64,000 nucleotides of DNA from Magnetospirillum aberrantis SpK. GTDB lineage: Bacteria > Pseudomonadota > Alphaproteobacteria > Rhodospirillales > Magnetospirillaceae. Below the pieces are notes generated by a model, which ran no database searches, was not told the DNA's origin, and saw only the letters and a program-made list of their open reading frames with translations. The DNA lies in contig NZ_JAAIYP010000034.1 in NCBI RefSeq assembly GCF_011022235.1, positions 307,583 through 371,582 on the forward strand, written 5' to 3'. The position numbers and the translations under genes were made by a program. Shown piece after piece: positions 46,697-64,000 of the stretch; position 1 is the first letter of the stretch, and each line of letters begins with the position of its first letter.

Positions 46697-47191
46697 ATCT
46701 GTCTCCCATAGTCCGGCGTTGCCTGTGGCTACGTAACCACACGCATCAAATCTGTTACGGGCAAGTCCAGGTATGTCCCTACAAAAGGGCTGCCGTGGGA
46801 AGTTCCCTACGAATTCGAATGACCGATATATGCCCACGTTCCACATACCAGGTCAATTAAATTAATTTTCCCAGCATAAACACATCCCGCACGATCATTT
46901 TTCTCATTTTCCCCCATGACAGAAAAAGCATGGCGAACAGGGCATTGGCCGGTGCCACGATATTCACCCAGGGAGCATGGTCTCTTGGGGGGGGGAGCTG
47001 GAAAATATGTGGAATCAGGTGAAATGGAAAAAGGCGCGACCGAGAAGCAGAGCCCGCTGTCGGGTGACGCATGAAATGCAAACGTGACAGGTAACGCGCA
47101 AAATATAGACGCATAATGTGCAAGGGCCACCCAGCGAGGGGCGGCAGGATCGATTGTCGCCCCTTAGAGGTCAGACACTTCGGTTTACGGA
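46697..47191. other. Gene-free interval (cold-shock leader and island boundary)
   Basis: No convincing gene in ~495 bases. The right part (46697-46850) is the probable csp leader. Further on there is an eight-G run near 46986 and no clear promoter or repeat. The island of accessory genes begins at the JetD-like gene, which ends at 47192. Confidence 0.5.
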
Positions 47192-48292: not shown

Positions 48293-48575
48293 GTTCGTGC
48301 TTTCCATCGGTTCCGTCGGCATCCTTCTTTATAAAAAGGTCACCCCCCTCCGCCGTTTTCGATAAAGGCCTTTTCGTGGGCTTGCGACGACCGTGCACCG
48401 TCGTGACCACCATCTCGCCGGGCGCAGTCTTCCGAATGGTCCCATCCCGATTCTGTGTGACGATCTCCGTCCAGACATGACGTCCGTCCCCGTCAAGCCC
48501 CATAGCGCTCTTTCCGATCAGCATGCGGGGAAAGATGTCGAAGTTGTTTCGGTAGTGAGGCGGGTGCAGAAAGCC
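48279..48575 (-). pseudogene. 5'-truncated gene coupled to the JetD-like gene
   Basis: About 98 codons remain of a protein C-terminus (PPHYRNNFDIFPRMLIGKSA then GRHVWTEIVTQNRDGTI), ending by overlapping the JetD-like start, so it was in the same operon. Its 5' part is lost at a junction near 48575, where a UvrD-type fragment in opposite orientation begins. In a Wadjet operon this place is taken by JetC, but the fragment itself is not recognisably JetC. Confidence 0.5.
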
Positions 48576-49665: not shown

Positions 49666-49825
49666 TCGGTGTTGGGGAGATAAACTTACCGAGCCGCCCT
49701 TCACCTCTCTCTCGACATCACCCGCGGCACCTGATCCAACATCCCCAAAGCTACGACCTCCTGGCCCGTACGGATCGCGGCCTCGGGGGCTCTTTCCGTT
49801 CTGGCTGAAGGAAGCGAGTTGCGTT

Positions 49826-50800
49826 TCACACTCGGCTAGGTACGCCCGCCTCAAGTAGTTCATTTGCCAATCCAATTTGTTGCGGTGCTGATTTCAGCGA
49901 AATCGCAGAGTGCCGGATTGCGAGGGCAGCATCCTGGAGATATGCACATCCCGCACCGCTTTGTCCAATTACGGCAAGCGCCCCCGTCATCTTGTCGGCC
50001 GTCATTTCCGATGGCACCAGCACCCAGAACCGGCGGAAAAACGGAGCCTGAAAAGCCACTTCCTTCAGCACCCGATTCAACTCCACCCGGCTGGGCTCCA
50101 TCGACAGCGCGACGGGATAGAATCCGTCCACGAACTCGATCCCGAAGTCTTTCACCGCCACTGCCACGGCGAAGGGCGTGAAGTAGGTGAAGCGGTAGTC
50201 GCAGGAGAGGCGGACGTCGCCCTCGCCGGACAGCTTGGCCACGTCCCTCTTCAGGGCTTCCCAGCAGGCTTCATGGAACGGACTGGGGAAGACCTTGGCA
50301 GGCTTACGCAGCTTGCCCACGGGCTTAGTGGCCGGAATGGCGAGTGCGCCGCCGAACGGATCCTGGTTGAGATGGCTTGGCAGCGGACGACCCGAGGCCT
50401 CACGGTAGATGAGGTCGAGGGTCTTCTGTGTCAGCGAACCGTCAACGACGGCGTCGGCGATCTCCAGCGCCTTTTCGGGCGCTACCTTGTGCAGGCGGGC
50501 GAACAACTCGAGTTTGGAGAATTGCGCGGTGTTGCCATCCAGCCGCTCGCGGAACTTCAGATTCGGATGGGCTCGGTCGAACTCTTCCAGGAAGATGCGT
50601 ACCGCGGACATGCGGCGCAGGACAGCCGGCGCATAGCGCGAGGCCTTTGCCGCTTCCTCGATGAAGCTGACCGATAGCTTGCCTCGACGTCCCCCGACGT
50701 CGCTGTCGCGTACCTGGTCCAGGATCTCGGCGATTCGCTGCCATCCCTCGGCGGTGTCGCGGGCTTTCTTCAGTGCGGCAAGCGCTTCCTCGGCTGTCAT
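49826..50800 (-). CDS. Conserved unknown protein divergent from tnsA
   Basis: 324 residues from MTAEEALAALKKARDT (start chosen for AAGGATGGG; the reading extends to 50854). First ~170 residues are helical and resemble ParB/DNA-partner helices (WQRIAEILDQVRDSD, FIEEAAKASRYAPAVLRRM); the C-terminal part is alpha/beta (FWVLVPSEMTADKMTGALAVIGQSGAG). It diverges from the TnsA-like gene with a shared palindrome between. No family recognised; a Tn7-like accessory gene is possible. Confidence 0.6.
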   Translation of the reverse strand: MTAEEALAALKKARDTAEGWQRIAEILDQVRDSDVGGRRGKLSVSFIEEAAKASRYAPAVLRRMSAVRIFLEEFDRAHPNLKFRERLDGNTAQFSKLELFARLHKVAPEKALEIADAVVDGSLTQKTLDLIYREASGRPLPSHLNQDPFGGALAIPATKPVGKLRKPAKVFPSPFHEACWEALKRDVAKLSGEGDVRLSCDYRFTYFTPFAVAVAVKDFGIEFVDGFYPVALSMEPSRVELNRVLKEVAFQAPFFRRFWVLVPSEMTADKMTGALAVIGQSGAGCAYLQDAALAIRHSAISLKSAPQQIGLANELLEAGVPSRV

Positions 50801-50894
50801 TCCCATCCTTTCGATCAGGCGAGGATAGTAGCGGTGGTGTGGTGATGTAAGCAAGTCACGTGGCGATTGACGCGCCCTATGTTTTGTGTAAAGT

Positions 50895-50908
50895 TTACAT
50901 CGATGTAA
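50895..50908. promoter_or_regulatory. 14-bp perfect palindrome between divergent genes
   Basis: TTACATCGATGTAA, within GTTTACATCGATGTAACT. It lies 20 bases upstream of the TnsA-like start and ~95 from the 49826-50800 gene, the position of an operator in an AT-rich divergent promoter region. It could also be part of a transposon end, but Tn7-type multiple TnsB sites are not visible. Confidence 0.55.
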
Positions 50909-50928
50909 CTATATTGAGGTCGCAACCG

Positions 50929-51573
50929 ATGCTGCTTCGTGTGACAGAGGGCACCAGAGCCCGCAGGGTCATCACCCGCAGTCCGACCCGCACCGTGGGC
51001 CGGTTTCCCAGCCTCAAGGCCGGGCGGTCGATCCATTGGGAGTCCCAACTCGAGCGGGACTTCGTGTACCTGCTGGAGTTCGATCCGGCGATGCTGGATT
51101 ACCGGGAGCAGCCGGAGACCATCCGCCTCACCATCGATGGCAAGCCGCGTCGCTACACGCCGGACTTCCTGGTCCGGACCGCCTCCCTGATGGTGGTCTA
51201 CGAGGTCAAGCCGGCGGATAAGGCCGCCCATCCCGATATGGTGGCGCTGTTCGCCGCGGCGGCGGACCATTATGCCGGCCGGGGCATGCACCACCAGGTC
51301 GTCACCGAGGCCGACATCCGCATCCGGCCATACCTCGACAACGTCGCCCTGCTGCTGCGCTATCGCAGCCACCCCGTCGATCCCGACGTCGAGGCCATGG
51401 TTCTCGACCGGCTCGCTTTCGAGCCCGCTCCGTTGGGTGAGCTGATCGCCGCGCTCGCCCCCCATGCCGATATGGCCGAGGTGCTGGCGTTGCTGGCCAA
51501 CCGTCGGCTGGCCGCGGATCTGGCCCGCCGGCTGGATCGGGATGCCGTGATCCGGCTGCCCGGGGAGGGCTGA
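50929..51573 (+). CDS. tnsA: TnsA-like endonuclease
   Basis: 214 residues. The restriction-endonuclease core of TnsA is visible: HWESQLERDFVYLLEFDPAMLDYREQPE (Glu), RYTPDFLVR (Asp) and VVYEVKPADK (E-x-K). The C-terminal winged-helix-type region (LGELIAALAPHADMAEVLALL) follows. TnsA cuts the 5' ends of Tn7-like elements with TnsB. Start at 50929 has GAGG upstream. Followed four bases later by the broken tnsB. Confidence 0.85.
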   Translation: MLLRVTEGTRARRVITRSPTRTVGRFPSLKAGRSIHWESQLERDFVYLLEFDPAMLDYREQPETIRLTIDGKPRRYTPDFLVRTASLMVVYEVKPADKAAHPDMVALFAAAADHYAGRGMHHQVVTEADIRIRPYLDNVALLLRYRSHPVDPDVEAMVLDRLAFEPAPLGELIAALAPHADMAEVLALLANRRLAADLARRLDRDAVIRLPGEG

Positions 51574-51576
51574 TCC

Positions 51577-52070
51577 ATGCCGTCGCTCGCCCTCGCCCGC
51601 AACCAGCGTGTCTGGATCGACGACGCCATGCACGAGGTGCGCGGCCGCGCCGGCGGCGAGGTCGTCCACCTGGAAAGGGTGCGCGACGGCGAAATGCGCG
51701 TCGTCACCCATCGGGAATTGGCGGAACTGATCTGCGCCGACAAGGCCAAGCTGGTGGCCGTCGAGGGCACCGGGCGCGAGCCGCAGATCGTCGAGCACAA
51801 CCTGGAAAAGGACATCGCCGCCCTGCCGCCAAAGGTGCGGATGGAACTCGATCGCCGACGGGAATACCTGAAGGCCGTCGAGGAAGGCGGTGTGCTGACG
51901 CTGACCGAGCGGTCGCTGTCGGGGCTGGTCCGCCAAGTTGCCAACAAGATCGGCGATTCCAAGCCGCCGCACTGGACCACCATCTACCGCTGGGTCAGCC
52001 GGCTGCGCAGGGCATCGGGCGACATCCGGGCGGTCATTCCCGCCTTCGACCGCCGCGGCAACCGCACGCG
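51577..52070 (+). pseudogene. tnsB: Truncated TnsB-like transposase (N-terminal fragment)
   Basis: About 163 codons of N-terminal DNA-binding region: TERSLSGLVRQVANKIGDSK and TTIYRWVSRLRRASGDIRAV(I) form the helix-turn-helix, ending AFDRRGNRTRR. The RNase H-like DDE domain is missing. From about 52075 the sequence is the 3' part of another, opposite-strand gene, so the transposase was cut by deletion or rearrangement. The open frame continues to 52212 with unrelated residues. Confidence 0.75.
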
Positions 52071-52075
52071 GCGCC

Positions 52076-52469
52076 TGACGTCCATCCCGTTCTTCAGCAT
52101 CGGCCACGTCACATTGTCCTGGGTGGCGCCAAAAACGACCAACGTCGCTTTCTCCGGGTCATGGGCATGGCGGCGAATCTCGATATTCGACGCCATCATG
52201 CTGGGATTGTAGCTGGGAGACACGCAGGCCATTTCCTGGTGCTTGGTCAGGTCGCAGAGGAACTGCCGCTCGCCGGTGATGACCAGATAGCGGCCGTCCA
52301 GTCCCTTCTTGAAATTGTCCACCCCCAGCCGACCGCTGACCTGCACCTGAAAACGGGGAGGAAATTGGTCGGAAGGCGCCCGGATCCCGGCGATCCACGC
52401 GCCCCCGCCGATCGCAACGGCGGCGCCAAGGCCGAGAGCGATCCACTGCATCTTTCCGAGCATGGGCAT
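52076..52469 (-). pseudogene. 3'-truncated membrane-anchored protein
   Basis: ~130 residues: N-terminal hydrophobic anchor (WIALGLGAAVAIGGGAWIAG) and an extracytoplasmic region (SGRLGVDNFKKGLDGRYLVI, RQFLCDLTKHQEMACVSPSY with a Cys pair). The natural C-terminus is lost at the ~52075 junction with the tnsB remnant. The gene overlaps closely with the small membrane gene upstream. Family unknown. Confidence 0.55.
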
Positions 52470-52474
52470 CCCCG

Positions 52475-52705
52475 TCAGCTCGCCCGCGACGATCCATCAC
52501 GCGCCGCGTCGATCCGCACGGTGTAGATCAGCGGCTTGCCCCGGAATACCTTGCTCAGCAGGTTCAGCACGCCGACGCCCAGACGCAGCACCACCAGCGC
52601 GGCGGCGCCACCCATGAAGATTTCTGGCTTCCCAGCCAGATAGGCGATCCCCGCCAGGACGACCGCCGCCACAGCCAGCAATGCGTTGAATTGTCCAATC
52701 CACAT
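52475..52705 (-). CDS. Small membrane protein
   Basis: 76 residues with two hydrophobic helices (about 8-26 and 30-50) and a basic tail. AGGGAGAGG ribosome site. It precedes the truncated anchored protein with only five bases between, so the two formed one transcript, divergent from the XRE gene. Function unknown. Confidence 0.65.
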   Translation of the reverse strand: MWIGQFNALLAVAAVVLAGIAYLAGKPEIFMGGAAALVVLRLGVGVLNLLSKVFRGKPLIYTVRIDAARDGSSRAS

Positions 52706-52832
52706 TCGTCCTCTCCCTGCCTGGATGAAACTCCGGTCGGCGCCCGCAAACACCGCATTCACTCGGTGAAATTGAAAATTGCACCGAGCATACGCGGTGG
52801 TCAAGGCCCATTGCCCGGCGGACACTCCGGGT

Positions 52833-53177
52833 ATGGACAAGAAACACCGATTCGGAACCCAGCTTCGCGCCATCCGGAAGCAGCGCGGCCTGACCCAGGA
52901 GCAGCTGGCCGAACTTATCGACCGTTCCGTCGATGCCGTCTCCAACATGGAGCGCGGCATCAGCCTGCCGAGCTACGAAACGCTCGGGCGGCTGGCCGAC
53001 AAGCTGGGCGTGCCCATGCGGGAGTTGATGGAAGCGGTGGAAGGGGACAGCGCCGCGGATCCGGAGCGGGTGGAACTGGAGGCGCGTCTGACGGTGCTGG
53101 CCCGGTCGCTGGACAAAAGGGACCTGCGCATCGCGTTGGAGCAGATGGCGGTTCTTTCCAAGCACGAGAGGCGTTGA
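52833..53177 (+). CDS. XRE-family transcriptional regulator
   Basis: 114 residues. Helix-turn-helix FGTQLRAIRKQRGLTQEQLAELIDRSVDAVSNMERG then LPSYETLGRLADKLGVPMRE; helical C-terminus. Divergent from the membrane gene pair with ~127 bases between, so it probably regulates it. The gene is intact, directly followed by the IS3 remnant. Confidence 0.85.
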   Translation: MDKKHRFGTQLRAIRKQRGLTQEQLAELIDRSVDAVSNMERGISLPSYETLGRLADKLGVPMRELMEAVEGDSAADPERVELEARLTVLARSLDKRDLRIALEQMAVLSKHERR

Positions 53178-53189
53178 TCTCGGTTGGTT

Positions 53190-54142
53190 GTTAGCCCCCC
53201 CTCTATCGAGGATCCTATGATCAAGTTCTACTTCGCGAGGGAAACGACGTGAGGTTCGGTTTCATCGCGAAGCACCGAGGGATTTGGCCGGTGTCGTGGC
53301 TCTGCGAGGCGCTCGGTGTCTCGCGCAGTGGCTTCCATGCCTGGCTGGTTCGTCCGCCCAGCCTGCGGGCTCGGCAAGATGAGGCGATCGTCGTTGCGGC
53401 CCGGTCCAGCTTTCTGGCCAGCGGCCGCACCTATGGGGCACGCCGGGTGTGGCGCGATGTACTGGCCGACGGCCTTGACTGTGGCCTGCATCGGGTCGAG
53501 CGGCTGATGCGGCGCGAGGGTTTGCGGGCCAGACCCCGGCGGCGCGGCCTTCCTGTCGATGGTGGCCTGCGCAAGGCCGAGGGCATTGCATGCAACGTGC
53601 TCGACCGGCAGTTCAGCGCCGACGCGCCCAACCGCAAATGGGTGGCCGATTTCACCTATCTGTGGACGGCGGAAGGCTGGCTGTACGTGGCGGCGGTGAT
53701 CGACCTGTTCTCGCGCCGGGTCGTCGGCTGGTCCATGAGCTCCACCATGACCAGCCAATTGGTGGTCGACGCCCTGATGATGGCGGTATGGCGGCGTGGC
53801 AAACCCGATGCCTTGCTGCACCACTAGGATCGCGGCAGCCAGTACACCAGCGACCACTTCCAACGCCTTCTGGCCGACCAGGGCATCCAATGCTCCATGA
53901 GTCGATCCGGCAACGTCTGGGACAACGCCGCCATGGAGAGCTTCTTTTCGTCGATGAAGACGGAAAGAACCGCCAGAACGGTGTATCGCACCCGCGATCA
54001 AGCCCGTGCCGATGTCTTCGACTACATCGAGCGCTTCTATAATCCTAAGCGACGGCATTCGACGCTCGGATACCTCAGCCCCATGGAGTATGAAATGCAG
54101 GCGTCATAAGCTAAGGATGGTGTCCACCAAACCCGCAGCAGG
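53190..54142 (+). mobile_element. IS3-family insertion sequence, 5'-truncated remnant
   Basis: OrfA is lost except its last codons (IKFYFARETT then stop at 53250) and the left inverted repeat is missing. OrfB is present but broken. The right end appears to be near 54142, where GTGTCCACCAAACCCGCAGCAGGCCA follows the OrfB stop and resembles the right inverted repeat of IS407-type elements. The left boundary is not defined. Confidence 0.75.
53249..54109 (+). pseudogene. IS3-family transposase OrfB, amber-interrupted
   Basis: HTH-type start SWLCEALGVSRSGFHAWL, integrase core with catalytic Asp in VADFTYLW and Asp in AAVIDLFSRR, then an in-frame TAG at 53825-53827 in place of the Ser of HHSDRGSQYTS. 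The reading resumes with DRGSQYTSDHFQRLLADQG and the terminal Glu region AAMESFFSSMKTE, ending EMQAS. A single substitution (TCG to TAG) would explain it. Function lost unless suppressed. Confidence 0.85.
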
Positions 54143-54245
54143 CCACCTGGCCAAGACTTCGCCGTGAACTCGCGTGCCAAATCGCGATGGCATCGAGACC
54201 TTCGGCACCGGGTCAACGAGATCGCGGAAACGCGCGGACGCTCCC

Positions 54246-56189
54246 CTATCCACCAAACAGGTGTCGAGCCAAACTTTGCCCCTTGCGGAATCCATTCAAC
54301 CGGAACAACCCCCAGGACACCAGAATACTGAACACACAGACAGAGCCCGGCATGACAAACATGACCACGCCCATTACATAGGGGTCTGTATATGGCAGCA
54401 ATGTCGTCAGTTCCAATCCTGGGATGCCAAGCGCCCAGTCCAGAACTTTCCGTTCCATGCTGCTCTTGATAAAAATAAAAGACACGGAGACCAAAACCCA
54501 GGACAGAACCGCCGCCGCCGTCGAAATCACGAACATCTGTACCGCCAACATCTTTCGGATAAGCCAGCGGCTTGCCCCCTGAGACAAAAGCAACGCATAG
54601 CGTTGGCGTCTGTTGTGAACAACAAACGATAGAGAACTTGTGATAAATATGATCAGTGACGCCCCCATGTACAGCGTAACACGATATGAAACCTCATCGA
54701 TCATCGCCATGATATGCGATAACCGCCCCGCAAGATCATAGTAATGATTGTTTACATAAATACGCCTGTCATCCCTTAGTTCTTTCAACACATTGGGTAA
54801 CATAGCCCGATCATTCCAGGGAACATAAGCGATCACCGACTGGAAATCATATTTATCCTTGCCTTTCCAGTCCGCGACCGGAAGGTCCTCTGAGATGTAT
54901 GTTACGTTCCGGGCAATTCTTGATCTGACCTCGACATCGTCGATATTTGCGAGAGCCTGGTCGATCCGCCATTTGGGAAGTGGAAAGAGAAGCCGAACCG
55001 ATCGGTCGTCCTCTGATGCGGCCAGGCGTTCCGACCGACCGCCATAGCCCAACTCCACTGGGTCGTCGAGACTGGAGACGATGCACCGAGCGACCAGAAC
55101 CGACGCCCCCTGAAACCCAGGAGCTCGGCACGGGACCTTGCGGTCCCAGTAATCCGTGTTCACTCCGACGTGGGTTACGCGGCGCCATGAGGGGGGAAAC
55201 CGATCCTCGCCCTTACAATCCAGATACCAGTTGCCGCCCCCACGGCAGGCGATCACCTCGGGCGCGACCTGAGTGAGCTCGGACGGCACCTTCGTCAGCG
55301 CCTGAAGTTCCAGGGGAAAGACAATATCCGGAGCGTCGATTCCTGGAAAGATCACGGGAAACACACGGACTGGGACAATCTGCCGTCGCTGGCTTGGCGT
55401 GCCATTCCGATTGTAATTCAAGCCGATGGTGAGCCAGGCCGTCTTCAACTCATCCAGCCGCCTTGCCCCTTCGTTTTCCGTGAGCCAGGCATCGACCATG
55501 TCATCGGGAAGGACCTTGCGAAGCGCTGTCGCCGCACTGTCCAGGTCGAATTTCCTGAAGGTGTACCGCCCCTTGTTGACCATGATCACGAATGGCTTGC
55601 GCTGATCGAACAGCTCGACACGGTCCTGATCTGACAACCCAACAAGAGCCACGTTCTCCCACAACTCAGAATCCATGAAGACGGACCACGCCCGCAAATT
55701 TGCCGCATCGGCACCAAATATGTTTGGCGCGAACAGGTCGATATTTTTACGCTTCCAGTCTTCCCGTGCCCCCAACCGTTCGTACATGATCATTTTTATT
55801 TTTGCGCCGAAGCTTCCGATGTCGACACCGCCCCCGACTTCCATTTTTGTGGCGTCCGGTTCGTCGAGTTTCGGCACGAAGGTCACGCCATCGCCGGACA
55901 GCGCCAGCGGAATGCCCAATCGCGGAATATGGCCAAGCATCGCCGAGGGAACTCTTTCCTCCAGGCCAACCTTGACGACAAACAAGAAGCCACTGAGCGA
56001 GATCAGCACGGTCATCAAGACAAACAGGAACGTGAAATCCAGCCCTCCTGGACAGGGATGCCCGTAGCCACCCTCACGTCCCGCCCCCCTCTTCGCCACC
56101 CTGCGAGCCAGATGGCGGAGGCGCCCCAATCCCCAGCGCAACGGGAGCACCAACTCGTTCAATGCGAAAACCGTGAAATTCATACGCAT
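54246..56189 (-). CDS. FtsX/MacB-type ABC permease (TagS-like)
   Basis: 647 residues. One transmembrane helix near 50-75, a large periplasmic domain of ~440 residues (with several Cys and RNVTYISEDLPVADWKGKDK-like stretches), then three helices (VTLYMGASLIIFITSSLSFVV, FVISTAAAVLSWVLVSVSFI, YVMGVVMFVMPGSVCVFSIL). This is the MacB/FtsX layout for proteins that transmit ATPase movement to the periplasm rather than move a substrate. It is the last gene of the operon. TagS of the T6SS phosphorylation pathway has this build. Confidence 0.75.
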   Translation of the reverse strand: MRMNFTVFALNELVLPLRWGLGRLRHLARRVAKRGAGREGGYGHPCPGGLDFTFLFVLMTVLISLSGFLFVVKVGLEERVPSAMLGHIPRLGIPLALSGDGVTFVPKLDEPDATKMEVGGGVDIGSFGAKIKMIMYERLGAREDWKRKNIDLFAPNIFGADAANLRAWSVFMDSELWENVALVGLSDQDRVELFDQRKPFVIMVNKGRYTFRKFDLDSAATALRKVLPDDMVDAWLTENEGARRLDELKTAWLTIGLNYNRNGTPSQRRQIVPVRVFPVIFPGIDAPDIVFPLELQALTKVPSELTQVAPEVIACRGGGNWYLDCKGEDRFPPSWRRVTHVGVNTDYWDRKVPCRAPGFQGASVLVARCIVSSLDDPVELGYGGRSERLAASEDDRSVRLLFPLPKWRIDQALANIDDVEVRSRIARNVTYISEDLPVADWKGKDKYDFQSVIAYVPWNDRAMLPNVLKELRDDRRIYVNNHYYDLAGRLSHIMAMIDEVSYRVTLYMGASLIIFITSSLSFVVHNRRQRYALLLSQGASRWLIRKMLAVQMFVISTAAAVLSWVLVSVSFIFIKSSMERKVLDWALGIPGLELTTLLPYTDPYVMGVVMFVMPGSVCVFSILVSWGLFRLNGFRKGQSLARHLFGG

Positions 56190-56198
56190 CGGCTCGGC

Positions 56199-56948
56199 TC
56201 ACCCCCCCATGACGACAGACGAGGCGGACGGGCCGCGGGATTCAATTCTTAACCTCGAGTTTCCACGTTCCTCCGAATGCGTCACCCAGATCAACAACCG
56301 CCCCGGAGCGGACGACCAACCCTTGAAGAAGGCGATGACTTGCTCCTCGGTCGCCTGATCAAGGCTCGCCGTTGGCTCGTCGGCGAATACGACATTCGGG
56401 TCGTGAACAAAGGCTTGCGCAAGCGCGACGCGTTGCTTTTGACCGCCGGACAACTCGTATGGATATTTCGCACAGAAGCCATCAAATATGTTGAGCTCCG
56501 ACGCAATCAGGAAATTTCTTAGCATTTCCTTGGACTTGTTGGCGGCATCCTCCTTATTCAATCCGTCATTCGCAAGGAACAGCCTGAAAATCAGGTTATC
56601 GATAACCGTAAGTTGCGGCTGAAGAGGCGAGTGCTGGAAAGCAACCCCAAATCTCTTCTTGCGAATATCCATCAATGTCGGTTCGTCGCAGTCACGATGA
56701 AGGCGGAATTCGTCGCCCCCGGAAATCCTCCACGCCACGGATCCCTCGTCGATCCACTCCAGCCCGGCAAGAGCCTTCAGCAGTGTGGTCTTTCCGGTGC
56801 CCGTCGCCCCTTCGATGGTGCAGATGCCGCCGTTCGCCGACGATATCCGCACGTGATCCGCGTGCAACGTGAAGGTCTTGCCCTCCTCCGCTCGACGCGT
56901 GACCTGGACGTTGTCGACAGCGACCGTGGTTGGTTCCGGCCCGGTCAC
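56199..56948 (-). CDS. MacB/LolD-type ABC ATPase (TagT-like)
   Basis: 249 residues from a GTG overlapping the upstream stop (GTGA). Walker A GATGTGKT (47-54), Q-loop Gln 105, signature LSGGQ (166-170), Walker B VVFADE (186-191) and H-loop VTHSEE near 229. The closest class is the LolD/MacB/FtsE type that pairs with FtsX-fold permeases. Glu 191 in Walker B is intact, so ATP hydrolysis is expected. Confidence 0.9.
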   Translation of the reverse strand: MTGPEPTTVAVDNVQVTRRAEEGKTFTLHADHVRISSANGGICTIEGATGTGKTTLLKALAGLEWIDEGSVAWRISGGDEFRLHRDCDEPTLMDIRKKRFGVAFQHSPLQPQLTVIDNLIFRLFLANDGLNKEDAANKSKEMLRNFLIASELNIFDGFCAKYPYELSGGQKQRVALAQAFVHDPNVVFADEPTASLDQATEEQVIAFFKGWSSAPGRLLIWVTHSEERGNSRLRIESRGPSASSVVMGG

Positions 56949-59434
56949 GGCAGATACTCGTTTGGCATCCAGCAATGACGCTCGCTCGTCCCCTTTGTCG
57001 TCCGGCAGAAATGAAGGCCTTCCGGCAACCGGCGCATGCCCCCTTCCTCTTGTCCGCCGGCCCAACGCCGCAGGACGAAACCATTCACGTTATAGCGCTC
57101 AAGACTTGCCGTCTTTGGATTCATCTCCTCTCCCGACTGCGCGCCTTCCAGAAGAAGCCTCGAGGAGTTGAGCCATTCCCGCAGAACCACGACGTCATGC
57201 GCCCCGATTTTGGCCATGTCCTCGGGAGCGGCGTATTGCAGCAGCGGCGAACCCAGTGATACCGGCATGGCCTTGACCCGTCTCATGTACGCCTCGAACG
57301 TTTCCCTTGGATCCACCTGCCGCCAAGCCGGGTTCCCCCCCGAAAGCTGGCGGACCAGGTCCGTCATCCCAAGCTGCAAGGCCCTGATCTGCGCGGCGTC
57401 GCCCTGGGCGTCGACAAGACGAGTATGGAGTTCGGCGAGTTTGGTTATCCAGCTGTGGAGATTGGTGTTCTGCAGGTAGACCTTGAGGGCGATGGTGTTG
57501 TCGGGGTCGATCAAGTCCTTGGTCGGGCTGACGATCGCGTTGGAACCTTCGTCATGGAGTGGCGTATTCCGCCTTACGAAATATTCATCGGACTCGATCA
57601 CCTGACGTTCGGAGCACAAGGCGGAGACCGACTCGCCCGCCTTCCGGCGTTCCTCCAGTTCCGGGGTGTTTCGCACATAGTCGTTGCACGCCGCCGGCTG
57701 CATCGACTCGAGAACAAGCGCCGGCACATCGGGAAATTCGCGGCTGACCTGAAGTGTGGACTGGACCGGCGACATCCCCGTGCCTCGCAGCCGGTTCCAC
57801 TCCTGGATCATATCCGGATTGACGAAGCTCTTTATCAGGCCGACGATCTTCTTGGACGCCCCACCGCCATCATTGAGCTGGAATACTTTCTGGGAATCGG
57901 ACTTTCTATATTGCTTGGGAAGACTATTGCTGTATTCATGAAGTATATTTAACGCATCGCGTTCGAAATGCCCATACGCGGCGTCGTAGCACGCGGGGCA
58001 TTTCAACTCGCTGGCGGCGGTGCGTTGGGTTTGAATGAAAACAGGCAGGAAGACATAGCTGTCGCGCACCCGGCTCATGTTTCTCAACAAATTGTGGAAT
58101 TCGCTCCTGGGGAAGGGGGCGTCCACCAAGGCGGCGGCGGGGACGTCCCGGGAGCCGGGCCGATAGCCGGCATCCCCCAGCACGATCATGATCTTCATAT
58201 GGTCCGGGCAATCCCGGACCAATTTGTCCAGGCCCTCCGTCATCCCCCCGATGGTATCTTCCCAGTAATCGTCGGTGTCGTCCTCGGTGACATGATCCGG
58301 CAACGCCTTCACGAAGGCGCCCAGATCGCGCGCCTTGCAATCACCGGCGGGAAGGTCCACCGAGATCGTCTGGCCGCGATCCAATGGTCCGCCCAGGGTC
58401 TTGTCACGGTAGATGACCGCGCCGAAGCGGATCGGCAAGCCGGAGAAATTCGACGCGGAACGGATTTCCGAGGTGAATTCGGGAAGAAATTTTTTCTTGA
58501 TGTCCAGAAAATGGCTGAGCATCGATTTCGTGCCATCAATCACGAACACGACATCGACCCCCGTCGCCAGCGACCGCATTTCCCCTTGTGCGTCGGCGAC
58601 AACGCCGGTCTGGCGGCGGACTGGCGTCGCGATCCGCACCACGTTGTCACGCTCGAAGGTTTCCAGAACGGGTAGGGGCTCGTTGTCCTTCAGCCATCGG
58701 GTTCGCCCGCCATAAAGACGAATGCAGCCGGGATCGCTGGGGGCACCCCCGGAAATTGCCGATTCCTTGTGCTTGTATATACAGGCAAAAGCACTTTCCT
58801 GATCGCTTTTGGGGTGAATTCCGTAGGATGAACTCCACTCCCAGCCCAGGCTGGCATCAATCCAACCAAGCAGCGCCCCGAGTTTGGGGGCGCGCGACAG
58901 AAGGTAATAGCGCTTCGAGCCTTCCTGATGCTCCGCATAGATGAACAGACGGTCGAAGCGCTGCACCTCGGCACACCCGGCCAAGGCCCCACCGCAGCCG
59001 GCGCCGGGACGCCTGGAAATGTAGATCGCGGACGGCCCCCGTTTCGCCTGGGTGGCCACGATGACCTGCGGCTGCGTCCGCACGTAGAATTTGCGTTCAA
59101 GCCCGCCGTCATGCGCCAAGGGAGTCGTCGAACACAGGACGTCGCGGGAATTCACCCACCACTCGGCCGAATCCTGATTGGAGTTCAGTGCGCTCAAACC
59201 GACGCGAGCGCCGGACAAGGCCACGATCCGATATTGCGCCCCAAAGGAGGCCGCGCTTCCCGTCGCGGCGGCGGGCGAAGGGTAAAGCCTAGCGTCGTCG
59301 CGCGTGATCGTCGCCGTTCGCACGACGTTCAGCAGTTTGATGCCCTTAAGCTCCAACAATTCCTGATCGGTACAGGCAAGGGCGTTGGCGGACGACAAGA
59401 CCAGCGCCATCAGGGCAATCACCACCCTTTTCAT
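56945..59434 (-). CDS. Secreted von Willebrand factor A-domain protein (PpkA periplasmic-domain-like)
   Basis: 829 residues. Signal peptide (MKRVVIALMALVLSSANALA, cleavage before CTD). An SH3-like/beta-rich region at ~35-245 is followed by the vWA domain: VDVVFVIDGTKSM (MIDAS variant DGTKS at 300-304), GAVIYRDKT and IMIVLGDAGYRPG. The rest is helical. PpkA kinases of T6SS carry this type of vWA region behind a kinase and membrane anchor; here the kinase is missing. Start at 59434 gives a proper signal peptide. Confidence 0.75.
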   Translation of the reverse strand: MKRVVIALMALVLSSANALACTDQELLELKGIKLLNVVRTATITRDDARLYPSPAAATGSAASFGAQYRIVALSGARVGLSALNSNQDSAEWWVNSRDVLCSTTPLAHDGGLERKFYVRTQPQVIVATQAKRGPSAIYISRRPGAGCGGALAGCAEVQRFDRLFIYAEHQEGSKRYYLLSRAPKLGALLGWIDASLGWEWSSSYGIHPKSDQESAFACIYKHKESAISGGAPSDPGCIRLYGGRTRWLKDNEPLPVLETFERDNVVRIATPVRRQTGVVADAQGEMRSLATGVDVVFVIDGTKSMLSHFLDIKKKFLPEFTSEIRSASNFSGLPIRFGAVIYRDKTLGGPLDRGQTISVDLPAGDCKARDLGAFVKALPDHVTEDDTDDYWEDTIGGMTEGLDKLVRDCPDHMKIMIVLGDAGYRPGSRDVPAAALVDAPFPRSEFHNLLRNMSRVRDSYVFLPVFIQTQRTAASELKCPACYDAAYGHFERDALNILHEYSNSLPKQYRKSDSQKVFQLNDGGGASKKIVGLIKSFVNPDMIQEWNRLRGTGMSPVQSTLQVSREFPDVPALVLESMQPAACNDYVRNTPELEERRKAGESVSALCSERQVIESDEYFVRRNTPLHDEGSNAIVSPTKDLIDPDNTIALKVYLQNTNLHSWITKLAELHTRLVDAQGDAAQIRALQLGMTDLVRQLSGGNPAWRQVDPRETFEAYMRRVKAMPVSLGSPLLQYAAPEDMAKIGAHDVVVLREWLNSSRLLLEGAQSGEEMNPKTASLERYNVNGFVLRRWAGGQEEGGMRRLPEGLHFCRTTKGTSERHCWMPNEYLP

Positions 59435-59451
59435 TCCCCACCCCCACATGG

Positions 59452-62400
59452 CTATCTACCAAGCATTTTCTGGAATTCCGACATCAAAGCGCGTTCACTC
59501 AACTCGGCACACCGCGTCACGCCCGCGCTCCGCCATCCGTCGCAGGCGCCGGCCTTGGCGACAACCGTCATGTCCAATGCCTGGGACACGCCCTTGATCA
59601 TGGCCAGTCGGGCGAAACCCTCGCTGGCACTTGGGCCGTTGGCGGTGACGAACACCAGACGCTCCAGGATCGTCCCCGGGTAAGCCGCCAGCGCGGCTTC
59701 CAGCGCATAGGACGAGGCGTTCGGCCGGGAATCGAACCGTACCCGGTTGAGCCGTCCGGCAAGCGTGTCGACCCCCGCCTGACTGGAGGTGAGCGGCAAA
59801 TTAGCGAGTTCCTCCCCCCTGACGACGAGATCGACACTTCCGTCGCCTTGAAGCAACGCAACGTCCAGACCCGGCGCCTTGCGCCCGGATGCACTCAATT
59901 TTTCAAGGGTCGTCCGCAGGGATCGATGCACCCCTTCCTCGGCGGTAAGCCCAAACGGAGCGTTCTCGATCAACACAACCGACCTCTTGGCGGCAAACAA
60001 GGGAACGATGTTGAAAACAATTCCCCCATCTCGGACCTCACCGGGCACGCAATCGCTCACATCCTGGCCATTTGATTTAATTTTTGCATACGAACAGTAA
60101 GGCGCTGACTTGCTGCTTATTATCGTCCTGTCAAACGGTATTTTAAACATTTGTTGATCCGTGCGGCATTTCTCAGCCGATTCATAGACGAACAGGTCGT
60201 TCCTGAACGTGAAGTCGGACTGTCCCTCGACGCGGATGGGCCGCACCTTGCTCGCCAGGAGCTTCGCCCTGAAATCGGCGGAAAGGCTCGTCTCGGTCAA
60301 AAGAACTTCCAGGCCCTCCTGGCGCCAAGGGTCCTTGAGGATAAGCTTGATCCGGTCTGGCAGCGTCGGCGCACCCCACCCGGCCGCCCCAAGGGTTTGA
60401 TGCGAAACTGGGTGCCGGAAGGGAGAGCAGTCCCCCCCCTTGCAGTAAGCAAGAGTATCGATGCTGACCGGACCTTCCCCCCGTCCACATGGGCCAAGGA
60501 TCGTCCCGAGGGCCTTCTCGAGGTCGAATCGAGGCTTGGGCACGAGCATTCCAATGGAAAGCGCGCGTTCCCCGGGCGTGCCGCCATCGATCCTCAGTGG
60601 CTCCCATCCCGCACCCACATCCAGGTCGCCCTTGACACACAAGGCGCCCCCCCCATCGCCCTTGCGGCATTGGCTGGATTGCGTGAGAACGTCGAGCAGC
60701 GGCGCGGGCGCCGTCACGTTGGCGCAGTTCCAGTCGGGAGACGAGACGGACACCCCGCTTTGGTGCTGGTTCAGGGACGCAAATCCGGAGCATTTCGGAT
60801 TGACGGTGGATGAGACGGACACTTTTCTGTCCAAGGCCGATTTCAGGCGCACGGAAATGGCGGTGGCATCCTGGGCGGGAGCGGCACCGTCGAAAGTCAG
60901 GCCCGCCGGCATGGCGCCGATGTAAGGCAGCGTGACAAGGTCGTCGTCCGAAAGGTCGCCGATCTCGCCAACTTTGCCGTCGCCATCAACCCGGGTCGTG
61001 GCGACCATCAAATGGCCAATTATTTTTCTATTGAGATTAATCCTGACTTTTGGCGGAAGTACGCCAAAGCAAGTCCAAGAGCCATTCTCAAGAAAGCAGC
61101 CATCCGGGCCGGCGGAATAGACATCCCATTTGTCTTTCCCCCTGAACTTCAACACGTAACTTGGCACCGTCGCCGTCTCGACTTGCCCGTCGACGCCGCG
61201 CCCCGGCCCCTCCCAGGAAAGGATTTTGGCATCCTTGGGACACAGCCAGGACAGGGGTGGCGATTCGGAGAGCGGCGCGCAACCGACCAAATCCTCCTCG
61301 GGACGAGACCGGCGCAGCGCGACCGAAGGGGCGCGAACGTTGACGCACGGCAATCGGAAGGACTCGACATCCTGACCGAGATCGTAGCGGCCTTGGCAGG
61401 ATCGAAGGACCTTGGACTGAATGGCGACGTGCCCGACGGCGCGCTGCTCGGGCGTTGGGATCCACCCCTTCCCGTCCGGCGGCGCCTTGCCATCGACCAG
61501 GTAGCCCCCGGGAATCTTGAACCTCACCGGACTGGCGACATCGGCGCCGGCGGCGGGCGTGCCGGAACCGGTCTCTATTCCCGTCGCCATGTCGATGGTC
61601 ACCGGCCCATCCGAGGACGCTACGTTGAACAACAATGGCCCTGCCGCGCCCGTCACATATATCGACACGCTGGACAGGGCCGGTTCCGGGCAAGCATAGG
61701 TATGTTCGGCAAGGGGCTTGCAGACACGTCCCTTTGCCGTTTCGACTTTCGTTATGGATTTGGCTTTGTCGGCGGGAACCACCGTCACATTGGTGACGCG
61801 AATATCGTCACCATCGAATGAAACAACGTCGCCATTGATGCTCATGGACTTGAAGGTTCTAGAGAGTTCCGCCCTGAGCGCGTTGTCGTTCTTGATTGCC
61901 GCGACGGTGTCCGCCACCAATTCACTGAACGACGTGTATTTGTCCCGAACGATGTCGACCGATGTTTCAACGTCCAGTTCCGATACGGTGACATGGTCCG
62001 GCACATTGATACCGTCCCTGAGGACAACCGGATATTCCGGGAATTTGGCCGTGCTGTCGGGGGCGTGACCGCCCCTGCAATCCAAGAGATAGCCGTCGAA
62101 CGGCAACAGGGCCTCGTTCTGGACCTTGCCCGCCTTTAACGTGCCGTCCTTCAAGAACCGTTCGAGAGGATGCGTTTTGTCGGCACCCCTTATGGCGTAA
62201 CGCTTGGTCGCCAGCACCGGCTCCGCCCCATGCAAGCGATACGGATCCACATCGCCGCTCTCGCGCCACCAGTCCCTGGTCCTGTCGATCATCTGGATGC
62301 GGCCATCCTTGAACCTGTCCAGGAACTTCTCCTCGCCATCCACCCACAACAAGGGACGCAGGCGACCGACATGGGTGCCCGCGTCCTTCTTCTCGATGGA

Positions 62401-62553
62401 AAGGCGCAAGATGATTTTCTGCTTGCCAATCGTCTTCGGCCACGGGTCGGAACAACGCCACAGGATTCGATCCTCCGAGCCGCTCGCCTGCCCCGGCGCG
62501 GTGCACGCCATCACGATGACGGACAGGAGCGCGATGACGAGAGCGATCCTCAT
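59452..62553 (-). CDS. Large secreted lipoprotein with vWA-like C-terminus
   Basis: ~1033 residues. Lipoprotein signal (MRIALVIALLSVIVMAC, Cys at 17). Long beta-rich body with many conserved-looking Cys pairs and no named domain. The last ~170 residues look like a degenerate vWA fold (RKAPGLDVALLQGDGSVDLVVR, YPGTILERLVFVTANGP). Likely anchored in the outer or inner membrane facing the periplasm. Start at 62553 is chosen for the signal peptide; 62577, 62571 and 62568 are possible. No family recognised. Confidence 0.65.
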   Translation of the reverse strand: MRIALVIALLSVIVMACTAPGQASGSEDRILWRCSDPWPKTIGKQKIILRLSIEKKDAGTHVGRLRPLLWVDGEEKFLDRFKDGRIQMIDRTRDWWRESGDVDPYRLHGAEPVLATKRYAIRGADKTHPLERFLKDGTLKAGKVQNEALLPFDGYLLDCRGGHAPDSTAKFPEYPVVLRDGINVPDHVTVSELDVETSVDIVRDKYTSFSELVADTVAAIKNDNALRAELSRTFKSMSINGDVVSFDGDDIRVTNVTVVPADKAKSITKVETAKGRVCKPLAEHTYACPEPALSSVSIYVTGAAGPLLFNVASSDGPVTIDMATGIETGSGTPAAGADVASPVRFKIPGGYLVDGKAPPDGKGWIPTPEQRAVGHVAIQSKVLRSCQGRYDLGQDVESFRLPCVNVRAPSVALRRSRPEEDLVGCAPLSESPPLSWLCPKDAKILSWEGPGRGVDGQVETATVPSYVLKFRGKDKWDVYSAGPDGCFLENGSWTCFGVLPPKVRINLNRKIIGHLMVATTRVDGDGKVGEIGDLSDDDLVTLPYIGAMPAGLTFDGAAPAQDATAISVRLKSALDRKVSVSSTVNPKCSGFASLNQHQSGVSVSSPDWNCANVTAPAPLLDVLTQSSQCRKGDGGGALCVKGDLDVGAGWEPLRIDGGTPGERALSIGMLVPKPRFDLEKALGTILGPCGRGEGPVSIDTLAYCKGGDCSPFRHPVSHQTLGAAGWGAPTLPDRIKLILKDPWRQEGLEVLLTETSLSADFRAKLLASKVRPIRVEGQSDFTFRNDLFVYESAEKCRTDQQMFKIPFDRTIISSKSAPYCSYAKIKSNGQDVSDCVPGEVRDGGIVFNIVPLFAAKRSVVLIENAPFGLTAEEGVHRSLRTTLEKLSASGRKAPGLDVALLQGDGSVDLVVRGEELANLPLTSSQAGVDTLAGRLNRVRFDSRPNASSYALEAALAAYPGTILERLVFVTANGPSASEGFARLAMIKGVSQALDMTVVAKAGACDGWRSAGVTRCAELSERALMSEFQKMLGR

Positions 62554-62567
62554 GACACCACCCGACA

Positions 62568-63350
62568 TCATGGACATGCGACCAGGACACGGAATCCCCT
62601 TTGGGGGGAGGCCGCATAGGAATTGACATGGGCGAGGTCTGAGCCGCCCGCGCGCTTGATGGCGCGCGCCCAGCAGGATTTTCCGTCAACCTGATCCTTG
62701 CAGTCTGAAAGCCACTCATCCATGTCGGCCCCCGGCAGGTTCTCAAACAGGTTTGTCCGCTCCGCCCAGCTTGGAAGCTTGATGGTCAAGCGGGTGAGCG
62801 CGGACAGGTAGTCGGCGTAGGCGTGCGCCGCTGCCCATGGGACGCAGGTTGCGGGCAAGGATGGCTCGGAGGGAAAGCCACATTGATCGGGGGAGCCGTC
62901 CGCCCCACCATCGGTGAACGACGAGAGGAGTGCCCGAAAGCCGTCGCCCTCGCGGTAAGGGCCTGAATGACCGTCGAGAGACGCCTCGAACGTCTTGTCA
63001 CCGCCGGCGGCGCGCACCGCCTGGGCCGGCACAAGTGATGACAGCGCCACATTCGCACCCGAGTCCGATGTCGCGACGGTCATCGGCAGGCAGCCGGGGC
63101 AAACCCGCTCGATCTTGGCAAGCACCGATTTGCACTTGCCGTCAGTCGCCACCTCGTTGGTGGGTGACATGGAGAATATGAACCACAGCATCCAACCAAT
63201 AAGCGCAAACACACTCACGATAGACAACGGCACAAGCACCTTCCGCTTCCACGAGCGATCGGGGGCCATTTTCGAATATAATATCATGAAAATTGTCTGG
63301 AGCATGATTGCGGTCGCCCCAATGAGGGCAGAAAAAACACCTTCCGACAC
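62568..63350 (-). CDS. Membrane-anchored SUMF1/FGE-fold protein (TagR-like)
   Basis: 260 residues from a GTG with GGGAGGTGGGG upstream. Two hydrophobic segments in the first ~65 residues, then a periplasmic domain with FGE-sulfatase (C-type lectin-like) features: VPWAAAHAYADYLSALTRL, EWLSDCKDQ, SCWARAIKRAGGSDL and GFRVLVACP. The catalytic WEW/Cys pair of true formylglycine enzymes is not seen, so binding rather than catalysis is more likely. TagR of the T6SS pathway has this fold. First gene of the operon. Confidence 0.7.
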   Translation of the reverse strand: MSEGVFSALIGATAIMLQTIFMILYSKMAPDRSWKRKVLVPLSIVSVFALIGWMLWFIFSMSPTNEVATDGKCKSVLAKIERVCPGCLPMTVATSDSGANVALSSLVPAQAVRAAGGDKTFEASLDGHSGPYREGDGFRALLSSFTDGGADGSPDQCGFPSEPSLPATCVPWAAAHAYADYLSALTRLTIKLPSWAERTNLFENLPGADMDEWLSDCKDQVDGKSCWARAIKRAGGSDLAHVNSYAASPQRGFRVLVACP

Positions 63351-63504
63351 CCCCCACCTCCCCCAGTCAGGCACATGGAACGCGGTTTTGCCACCGCTAC
63401 ACGCGCGGGACTCCACCCTCACCCGCTTGCCGACATTCACCCGAACATTCACAAATATCGGCGACAGCCGCCGCCATGATATACAACCAAGGAGAACATA
63501 TCCA

Positions 63505-63693
63505 TCACATTTCCGGAGGCGCCAAGGGGGCTTGCCGGCGGACCGGCATGAAAACGCCCGGGCCGTGGCCGGCACCGGGCGAGGATGGAGAAACGGGGCA
63601 ACGAAGGGGCGGATCGGCCGGCTTGGGCGGCTTGCGCCGCCGGCCCAGCCCGATCCGGCGGATGATGTCCTTGACGCGCCGCTTGGCGGACAT
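63505..63693 (-). CDS. Possible small basic protein before the operon
   Basis: 62 residues, strongly basic N-terminus (MSAKRRVKDIIRRIGLGRRRK) and Pro-rich tail. GGAGACAGCC stands seven bases before the ATG. It lies ~155 bases upstream of the SUMF1-type gene in the same direction and just after a terminator. Weak evidence; could be non-coding. Confidence 0.35.
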   Translation of the reverse strand: MSAKRRVKDIIRRIGLGRRRKPPKPADPPLRCPVSPSSPGAGHGPGVFMPVRRQAPLAPPEM

Positions 63694-63720
63694 GGCTGTC
63701 TCCGATCCGGGCAAAGAAAA

Positions 63721-63749
63721 ACCCCGGCACCGCTGTCGCGGACCGGGGT
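63721..63749 (-). terminator. Rho-independent terminator facing left
   Basis: ACCCCGG...CCGGGGT arms (63721-63727, 63743-63749) with inner CCGC/GCGG pair; on the minus strand it is followed by TTTTTCTTTG. It ends transcription entering from the right, so the five-gene operon must have its own promoter between here and 63350. Confidence 0.75.
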
Positions 63750-64000
63750 CGGGGCGCACCTGTGGTGATGCTGGCATCGTTTATAGCGGATGCCGGCATC
63801 CGCCGGCAATCACGTTTTGTTCTTGTTCGGGGCGTCGCCTCCTGCCATTCGGGCTCTTCAGTGGGTTTGCAGATTTTGGGTCAAAGACTGCTGAATGTTT
63901 GCACTATATGGGGCAGGGTATTTGCGGAATATGTGTCAGGTCATCTTGACGAATCAATGGCCTAGAGGGTTCTGGTTTGCACCTTATGCGTCACCCGACA
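63750..64000. other. Gene-free edge of window
   Basis: No convincing gene. AT content rises near 63860-63950 (TTTGGGTCAAAGACTGCTG...). It probably holds the 3' flank of a gene outside the window. Confidence 0.4.

What the first reader, a model, noticed from the sequence alone, without database searches (positions are those of the whole stretch)
54246..63350. Tag-like envelope module without a T6SS: SUMF1 + lipoprotein + vWA + ABC ATPase + FtsX permease
The five genes overlap or abut and run in one direction. A SUMF1-fold, a LolD-type ATPase and an FtsX permease together are the TagR/TagT/TagS set that acts upstream of the PpkA kinase in the T6SS threonine-phosphorylation pathway, and the vWA protein resembles PpkA's periplasmic part. 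No kinase, phosphatase, Fha or T6SS structural gene is in the window. The set may be an independent mechanosensing or envelope-damage system with an unknown output.
Basis: partly seen in the sequence, partly recalled or inferred. Interest (0 to 1): 0.8.

Follow-up and report, generated by a model that had tools for sequence, protein, structure and literature searches.

The report
Transposon-borne bacterial envelope sensor-like cassette
Five adjacent bacterial genes, lying inside what is likely a Tn7-type jumping element, would together build an ATP-driven complex in the cell envelope that likely passes signals across the inner membrane; the same five-gene row occurs on another bacterium's plasmid and beside the poorly understood srfB gene in other bacteria, which would give a handle on what srfABC genes do.

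Summary
The five genes at 54246-63350 are real, intact and co-directional. The same row (SUMF1-like, ~1000-aa secreted protein, vWA protein, ABC ATPase, FtsX-type permease) occurs complete in four other loci read, including a Sagittula plasmid; three of the four have srfB beside it. The vWA protein is closest in architecture to TssR of Bacteroidota T6SS; no product has a kinase domain, and the genome lacks tssC. The "lipoprotein" ends in a second, MIDAS-less vWA fold; its lipobox is not conserved. A shorter sister form lies within 12 kb of srfB in 27 of 36 genomes of the order with its vWA protein, and beside Hsp70 or tubulin-like genes in three others; the srfABC-tag link was published in 2013. 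The window copy is an orphan: exact 15-bp inverted ends at 47058 and 64000, subterminal repeats, TnsA and a TnsB fragment make 47058-64000 a likely Tn7-like element, and the contig stops at its end. Best reading: a mobile type VII ABC envelope complex, likely signalling, output unknown here. Mechanosensing is unproven; the window's SUMF1 call is weak. New variant of a known kind.

The parts
62568..63350 (-). SUMF1/FGE-like membrane-anchored protein (260 aa, two predicted TM segments), first gene of the cassette
   Evidence: Pfam FGE-sulfatase E 0.013, below cut-off; BLAST 40% over 40 aa to L017 FGE protein, E 7e-5; hhalign 50% to the family; same position as the SUMF1 gene in Sagittula
59452..62577 (-). 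~1041-aa secreted protein; residues ~860-1041 form a vWA fold without MIDAS motif
56945..59449 (-). secreted vWA protein (834 aa) with intact DxTxS MIDAS, TssR-like
56199..56948 (-). ABC ATPase (LolD/TagT/FtsE type), start inferred at GTG 56948
   Evidence: Pfam ABC_tran E 2.1e-24; Walker A, LSGGQ, Walker B and H-loop intact
54246..56189 (-). FtsX-type permease, 1+3 TM with ~430-residue periplasmic domain
   Evidence: Pfam FtsX 33.9 bits, cut-off 25.5; TM segments 54-72, 506-524, 554-572, 605-623
63986..64000 (-). right terminal inverted repeat TGTCGGGTGACGCAT of the likely Tn7-like element; contig ends here
   Evidence: exact match, inverted, to 47058-47072
63864..63993 (-). four ~20-bp subterminal repeats (TnsB-site-like) at 63974, 63919, 63896 and 63864
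47058..47072 (+). left terminal inverted repeat of the element
47065..47126 (+). three weaker subterminal repeats at 47065, 47085 and 47107
50860..51573 (+). TnsA-like transposase endonuclease
   Evidence: Pfam PF08722 E 2.2e-12; PDB TnsAB fusion E 2.6e-12
51577..52212 (+). truncated N-terminal part of a TnsB-like transposase
   Evidence: PDB TnsAB fusion E 0.0013; plasmid Mu-transposase proteins, E down to 7e-14; no Pfam or NCBIfam hit

Best explanation
The genes at 54246-63350 form a conserved five-gene cassette (a likely SUMF1-like protein, a ~1000-residue secreted protein predicted to end in a vWA fold, a second secreted vWA protein with intact MIDAS, an ABC ATPase and an FtsX-type permease) that likely works as an ATP-driven type VII ABC complex passing a signal between periplasm and cytoplasm, and that likely entered this genome as cargo of a Tn7-like element. 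Shown: intact ATPase motifs, the 1+3 TM permease plan, signal peptides, the same gene order in five loci, and (from low-confidence models) two vWA folds. Inferred: ATP-driven movement of the permease's periplasmic domain changes the state of the vWA/SUMF1-like assembly, or is gated by it when the envelope is disturbed, as in TagQRST or FtsEX. In related loci the cytoplasmic end is likely an Hsp70/actin- or tubulin-like NTPase (SrfB/SrfC, Hsp70, tubulin-like), once with a protein kinase beside it; no such partner gene was found in the window's element, so its output here would be another protein in trans or the periplasmic assembly itself.
For: Same five genes in the same order in G000, G070, Pseudorhodoplanes MAG L016, G218 and the Sagittula stellata plasmid NZ_CP155730.1; partial in L017 and G198. 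Leave-one-out hhalign of the window proteins: vWA 100%, FtsX 98.3%, ~1000-aa protein 96.9%; their shuffled controls (one each) at most 1.0%. ABC tree: five long-form rows on one side of a 100/100 branch, 14 canonical rows on the other. ATPase motifs and TM topology. vWA folds. TssR-family link. Partner link: vWA-profile hits in 39 of 317 genomes of the order, SrfB in 35 of 317, both in 31, 29 of these within 12 kb of each other on one contig. Hsp70 (PF00012, E 1e-74) or Tubulin_2 (PF13809, E 4e-56 and 1e-9) beside the cassette in three SrfB-less genomes; in the Hsp70 case a 1023-aa gene with a kinase domain (E 4e-42) follows too. Element; GC 0.606 inside against 0.655 left of it. TagQRST-PpkA depends on outer-membrane damage in Pseudomonas (PMC11881912, passages).
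Against: I found no experiment on this long form. Both AlphaFold models are poor (mean pLDDT 43.6 and 30.8). The SUMF1 assignment of the window protein is weak. The Sagittula ~1000-aa protein is tied to the family by position and one 103-residue BLAST match (E 1e-8), with only 14.6% by hhalign. The long FtsX aligns poorly with the canonical one (17.7%), so the two forms may not work alike. G000 has no SrfB, SrfC, SrfA or Tubulin_2 match, so a signalling output here is not shown; the SrfC and SrfA searches rang in no control genome. No target-site duplication could be seen, because the contig ends at the element's end. The tree tool warns that the window, Sagittula and G070 ABC rows are long and their place unsure.
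Confidence: 0.55

Rival explanations
1. It is an orphaned half of a srfABC-type locus: the envelope half moved onto the element without its cytoplasmic SrfABC half and no longer does the full job.
For: In G070, L016 and G218 the same cassette sits beside SrfB, in L016 and G218 divergently on the SUMF1-gene side, where the element ends in the window; G000 lacks SrfB by an HMM that rings in 9 of 99 genomes searched; the element also holds broken genes (TnsB, GajB, IS3).
Against: All five cassette ORFs are intact. The Sagittula plasmid cassette also has no SrfB match in the 41 kb read, so the cassette can persist without it nearby.
Confidence: 0.22
2. It is an export or envelope-maintenance machine (LolCDE-, MacB-, FtsEX- or YbbAP-like) that moves or activates a periplasmic substrate; no signal is sent inward.
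For: The ATPase scores best against DevA, bacteriocin-export and LolD models, all far under their cut-offs, and the permease against FtsX; type VII ABC systems do such work (abstract starts in the listing).
Against: The usual neighbours in related loci are cytoplasmic NTPases, which an export machine would not need; I recognised no outer-membrane channel or hydrolase gene in the conserved five.
Confidence: 0.17
3. It is an ordinary T6SS threonine-phosphorylation (TagQRST-PpkA-PppA-Fha) accessory locus.
For: An ABC ATPase, an FtsX-type permease and a SUMF1-like protein occur together with a vWA protein. In one relative with the shorter form (G053) a kinase-domain gene follows the cassette, but that genome has no TssC match.
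Against: No Pkinase domain in the five proteins; no TssC in the genome; TssC in only 12 of 41 genomes with the vWA protein; the three Pkinase matches of the genome lie on other contigs.
Confidence: 0.02
4. It is an anti-phage or anti-competitor defence cargo of the element.
For: It shares the element with a JetD-like gene and a GajB fragment; Tn7-like elements often carry defence genes (recalled).
Against: No PADLOC model hits the four non-ATPase products at E 0.01, and the ATPase matches only parts of other ATPase models; the wide link to srfB is not that of a defence system known to me.
Confidence: 0.08

Closest known systems
srfABC-tagQRST-ppkA-ligA-hap neighbourhood of host-associated Deltaproteobacteria (PMC3608642, one section read in full)
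   Same: SUMF1-like, ABC ATPase, FtsX-type and vWA-type genes together, mostly without T6SS, beside srfB/srfC; in the window's own genus a locus of this kind exists (L019, L022, L023)
   Different: The window cassette has a ~1000-aa extra protein, a 647-aa permease instead of ~430, another gene order (SUMF1 first), no TagQ-like match and no srf genes; its ABC protein falls in a separate clade
TssR of the Bacteroidota T6SSiii membrane complex (PMC10781749, passages)
   Same: secreted protein with N-terminal domain plus vWA domain; TssR-family P0002 aligns over 428 columns with the long form
   Different: Pfam TssR models stay below cut-off; no TssC in the genome; sits beside an ABC-FtsX pair
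H1-T6SS TagQRST-PpkA (PMC11881912, passages)
   Same: TagR/TagS/TagT-type composition, envelope location
   Different: no kinase domain, no TagQ-like match, no TssC
FtsZl1/vWA predicted membrane-remodelling operons (PMC2875224, passages)
   Same: vWA genes with tubulin-like genes; two shorter-form loci here carry Tubulin_2 genes beside the cassette
   Different: the passages I read do not describe an ABC-FtsX-SUMF1 set in those operons; the window's genome has no Tubulin_2 match
Type VII ABC systems (FtsEX, LolCDE, MacB, YbbAP; listing only)
   Same: separate ATPase plus 1+3 TM permease with large periplasmic domain (plan recalled)
   Different: neighbouring periplasmic genes are vWA and SUMF1-like, not EnvC, LolA, MacA or TesA

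Membership tests
T6SS TagQRST-PpkA pathway | PpkA-type kinase domain | tested here: not met
   no Pkinase in the five proteins; genome matches only on other contigs
T6SS TagQRST-PpkA pathway | T6SS structural genes (TssC) in the genome | tested here: not met
   PF05943: 0 matches in G000; rings in the E. coli control
T6SS TagQRST-PpkA pathway | TagR-type SUMF1 domain | tested here: inconclusive
   E 0.013 for the window protein, below cut-off; clear in the L017 homologue and over cut-off in Sagittula
T6SS TagQRST-PpkA pathway | TagQ lipoprotein | tested here: inconclusive
   tblastn of one TagQ-position protein of a relative against the window: no hit; a single diverged query is a weak test
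srfABC-tag locus | SrfB adjacent or in the genome | tested here: not met
   PF07520 absent in G000, present in 9 of 99 genomes and 35 of 317 genomes of the order
srfABC-tag locus | homologous vWA protein | tested here: met
   hhalign long form against shorter form 99.2%, E 1e-19
TssR | N-terminal domain plus vWA domain homologous to TssR | tested here: met
   hhalign 99.1-99.2% over 413-428 columns to P0002, which bears PF20782, PF20781 and PF17643
TssR | Pfam TssR models at their cut-offs | tested here: not met
   PF20782 E 0.021, 14.3 bits against 25.7
TssR | tssNQOP partner genes | not tested
   only tssC was searched for
Type VII ABC | intact ATPase motifs | tested here: met
Type VII ABC | 1+3 TM permease with large periplasmic domain and FtsX domain | tested here: met
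   hydropathy; PF02687 33.9 bits over cut-off
Tn7-like transposon | TnsA and TnsB | tested here: inconclusive
   TnsA clear; TnsB only as an N-terminal fragment
Tn7-like transposon | TGT...ACA inverted ends with repeated subterminal sites | tested here: met
   15-bp exact inverted pair at 47058 and 64000; 0.22 matches expected by chance with up to 2 mismatches; repeats
Tn7-like transposon | 5-bp target-site duplication | not testable with these tools
   contig ends at the right end

The most novel reading that the evidence does not exclude
The cassette is one version of a modular, mobile envelope-status switch: a TssR-like vWA pair, a SUMF1-like protein and a type VII ABC motor on the periplasmic side that plugs into interchangeable cytoplasmic actin/Hsp70-fold or tubulin-fold NTPases (SrfB/SrfC, Hsp70 with a kinase, FtsZl1-like). 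SrfABC, TagQRST-PpkA and the vWA part of the T6SSiii membrane complex would then be branches of one envelope-to-cytoskeleton signalling architecture, spread in part by Tn7-like elements and conjugative plasmids.
Probability: 0.25. Interest if true: 0.85.

Novelty: new variant of a known kind. Interest (0 to 1): 0.58.

Why it matters
SrfB relatives are common (142 of 72,556 plasmid records match one SrfB query), and the role of srfABC is called unclear in PMC3608642, although SrfABC of Xenorhabdus is reported to be cytotoxic (PMC6950479, abstract). The envelope cassette keeps a vWA-ABC-FtsX-SUMF1 composition while its cytoplasmic neighbour changes, which turns 'what does SrfABC do' into a testable question about what an envelope complex tells a cytoplasmic NTPase. 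The link from this vWA protein to TssR also suggests where a T6SSiii membrane-complex part may have come from.

Tried and rejected
T6SS accessory locus: rejected (no kinase domain, no TssC). Srf partner hidden at another contig end: 75 stretches of the genome (1,186,549 bases, 18,845 of them N) were searched by tblastn with cassette and partner proteins (ABC queries dropped from the printout). Four rows were left: two trypsin queries on one weak match; an Hsp70 match next to an iscS-like gene (read as HscA, recalled); and a match of the 1023-aa protein of L054 near C9's left end, which is kinase on both sides (Pkinase in L054's protein, and at that place of C9), not a partner beside the cassette. 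Contig middles beyond 20 kb from the ends, the last 2 kb of C48 and the last 228 bases of C29 were not in that scan; the HMM searches took the whole genome as held. Structure prediction: both models are low-confidence, so only the vWA domains are used. Protein database searches returned almost only the window's own proteins. Resemblance to PpkA's vWA part was not tested. Of the eight genomes with a vWA hit but no SrfB: G000 is the window; G154's hit (E 3e-5) is not a cassette as read but is kept in the count of 39; G013's contig ends upstream of its vWA gene; G198 is fragmentary; G060 has vWA, ABC, FtsX and SUMF1 genes beside a diverging 2601-aa ORF that I did not identify; G047, G078 and G053 are described in the report. 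In the Sagittula 41 kb, one 63-residue Hsp70 match (E 4e-6) falls in a gene annotated as relaxase and was taken as chance.

Novelty in print: searches, mostly seen as listings; among the papers I opened only PMC3608642 describes the srf-tag link.
Full report
1. What is there. Junctions: the SUMF1-like stop overlaps the next start; the ABC start is most likely the GTG at 56948, overlapping the vWA stop; the permease starts 9 bases after the ABC stop. Pfam gives ABC_tran E 2.1e-24 and FtsX 33.9 bits, both over cut-off; FGE-sulfatase E 0.013, TssR_VWA E 0.021 and VWA E 0.25 are under cut-off; the 1041-aa protein has no hit. The ATPase has Walker A, LSGGQ, Walker B and H-loop; the permease has TM segments at 54-72, 506-524, 554-572 and 605-623, the 1+3 plan of type VII ABC permeases (plan recalled).

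2. A conserved unit. A protein search over 5.8 billion sequences (7994 candidates scored) found only the window's own vWA protein, and with a two-sequence profile one more, a TssR-family protein. Among 99 related genomes only G000 itself and G070 matched. With a four-sequence profile, 39 of 317 genomes of the order matched; four of these (G070, G000, G218, G198) score over 100 bits and are the long form (G070 and G000 are in the profile), the rest 62 bits or less. G070 holds the five genes in the same order behind srfB and srfC. Genome contigs gave a Pseudorhodoplanes MAG (L016) with the five genes and srfB, and a gammaproteobacterial MAG (L017) with the first three genes before the contig ends; a third match (L018) showed no cassette. 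G218 has srfC, srfB, a SrfA-like gene and a trypsin-like gene diverging from an 855-aa gene and the cassette. The Sagittula stellata E-37 plasmid NZ_CP155730.1, typed conjugative, has SUMF1 (so annotated), 1068-aa, 873-aa vWA, ABC and 666-aa permease genes in a row, followed by an ExbB-type gene and others; no srf match was found in the 41 kb read. Complete long-form rows: five loci; partial: two. Leave-one-out hhalign: window vWA 100%, permease 98.3%, ~1000-aa protein 96.9%, SUMF1-like 50.4%; the shuffled sequences, one each, at most 1.0%. For the other members the ~1000-aa protein gave 74.7 to 97.0%, except Sagittula at 14.6% (which matches G218's by BLAST over 103 residues, E 1e-8); the SUMF1-like proteins gave 97.2 (L016), 96.0 (Sagittula), 67.5 (L017), 40.1 (G218) and 6.5% (G070).

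4. Two forms of one kind. In the window's own genus and order a shorter ('canonical') form is common: SrfA-like genes, SrfB, SrfC, a 366-aa protein, vWA of about 670 aa, ABC, permease of about 430 aa, SUMF1 of about 530 aa, in several loci a TagQ-position lipoprotein, and a trypsin-like protein (NF040486 SrfA match). Across 317 genomes: vWA profile in 39, SrfB in 35, both in 31; in 29 the two lie within 12 kb on one contig and in two on different contigs; 8 have the vWA protein without SrfB and 4 SrfB without the vWA protein. Counting only shorter-form hits: 36 genomes, 27 of them with SrfB within 12 kb. The hypergeometric value (3e-31) ignores relatedness. Of the eight without SrfB, G047 and G078 carry Tubulin_2 genes and G053 an Hsp70 gene beside the cassette; the companion of the G078 tubulin gene has a weak FtsA match (E 5e-4), and in G053 a 1023-aa gene with a protein kinase domain (E 4e-42) follows the TagQ-position genes, so a kinase can stand beside this cassette in a genome without TssC. 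The other five are the window genome, one that is not a cassette, two that are cut or fragmentary, and G060, whose neighbours I could not name. TssC occurs in 12 of 41 genomes tested (the 39 plus those of L016 and L017), not in G000, G070 or L016's genome, but in G218 and L017's genome. An ABC tree puts the five long-form rows and the 14 canonical rows on two sides of a 100/100 branch (the tool warns of long branches for W, L140 and L005), so the window cassette is not a simple variant of its genus's own copy. Long and canonical permeases align only weakly (17.7%).

5. A likely transposon. The sequence TGTCGGGTGACGCAT occurs exactly twice in the window, inward-facing, at 47058 and at 64000, the contig's last base; 0.22 matches are expected by chance with up to two mismatches. 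Four ~20-bp repeats lie inside the right end and about three weaker ones inside the left. The 16.9 kb between hold a TnsA, a truncated TnsB-like ORF, an IS3 remnant, a JetD-like gene and a C-terminal GajB piece. GC is 0.606 inside and 0.655 to the left. Another copy of the end motif is the very first sequence of contig C41, followed by what read like housekeeping genes; in 1.25 Mb of this genome no other copy was found with up to six mismatches over 25 bases. C41 may be the right flank, but that is not shown. No duplication of the target site can be seen.

6. No partner found in this genome. SrfB, SrfC, SrfA, Tubulin_2 and TssC gave no match; the SrfC and SrfA searches had no ringing control, while SrfB, Tubulin_2 and TssC searches did ring elsewhere. 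Contig-end scan. Three Pkinase matches lie on other contigs. The window copy is therefore an orphan as far as the assembly tells.

7. How it likely works. Reported for relatives: TagQRST-PpkA responds to outer-membrane damage (PMC11881912, passages); type VII ABC systems use ATP to move periplasmic parts (abstract starts in the listing). By analogy the ABC-FtsX pair would couple ATP turnover to the vWA/SUMF1-like assembly. The direction of information, the trigger and the output are not shown. The permease has a ~430-residue periplasmic domain able to hold a partner; MIDAS would make binding metal-dependent (inference).

8. Known or new. The link of srfABC with tag-like genes without T6SS is in print (PMC3608642, section read in full); so is a vWA/FtsZl1 link (PMC2875224, passages), and SrfA, SrfB and SrfC of Xenorhabdus form a complex reported as cytotoxic (PMC6950479, abstract). 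I found no description of the long form, of its TssR-like architecture, of its place in a Tn7-like element, or of one cassette shared between SrfB, Hsp70 and tubulin-like neighbours, in the searches (listings, and the papers named above). I file it as a new variant of a known kind.

Noticed in passing
window 47192-48322 (-): JetD-like gene (JetD_C E 5e-8; PADLOC JetD1 E 6e-17) inside the element; JetA/B/C were not searched for separately
   Followed up: partly
window 48601-49665 (+): C-terminal part of a GajB-like helicase (profile 273-629 of 632): a broken Gabija gene
   Followed up: no
window 53249-53827 (+): IS3-family transposase piece between the TnsB fragment and the cassette
   Followed up: no
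window 64000: The contig ends exactly at the element's terminal base, and contig C41 starts with a third copy of the end motif followed by chromosomal genes; the cause of the assembly break is unexplained
   Followed up: partly
L053, L054, L057: Shorter-form cassettes without SrfB sit beside Tubulin_2 or Hsp70 genes, so the cytoplasmic neighbour changes
   Followed up: partly
L054 16227-19298 (+): 1023-aa protein with a kinase domain (Pkinase E 4e-42) and a SrfA-like match (E 2e-7) downstream of an Hsp70-type cassette in a genome without TssC
   Followed up: partly
L140 25276-30921: Behind the Sagittula cassette: coiled-coil proteins, a MotA/ExbB-type channel, small membrane proteins and a TPR protein, a possible alternative partner
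   Followed up: no
L016 4057-5745 (-): Trypsin-like protease joined to a SrfA-like part (Trypsin_2 E 8e-21; BLAST to the SrfA-like 480-aa protein E 9e-8)
   Followed up: no
plasmid collection: SrfB relatives occur on 142 plasmid records, 114 of them from Klebsiella
   Followed up: no
L051 (G198): Long-form cassette in pieces, with two vWA fragments on opposite strands: possibly a decayed copy
   Followed up: no
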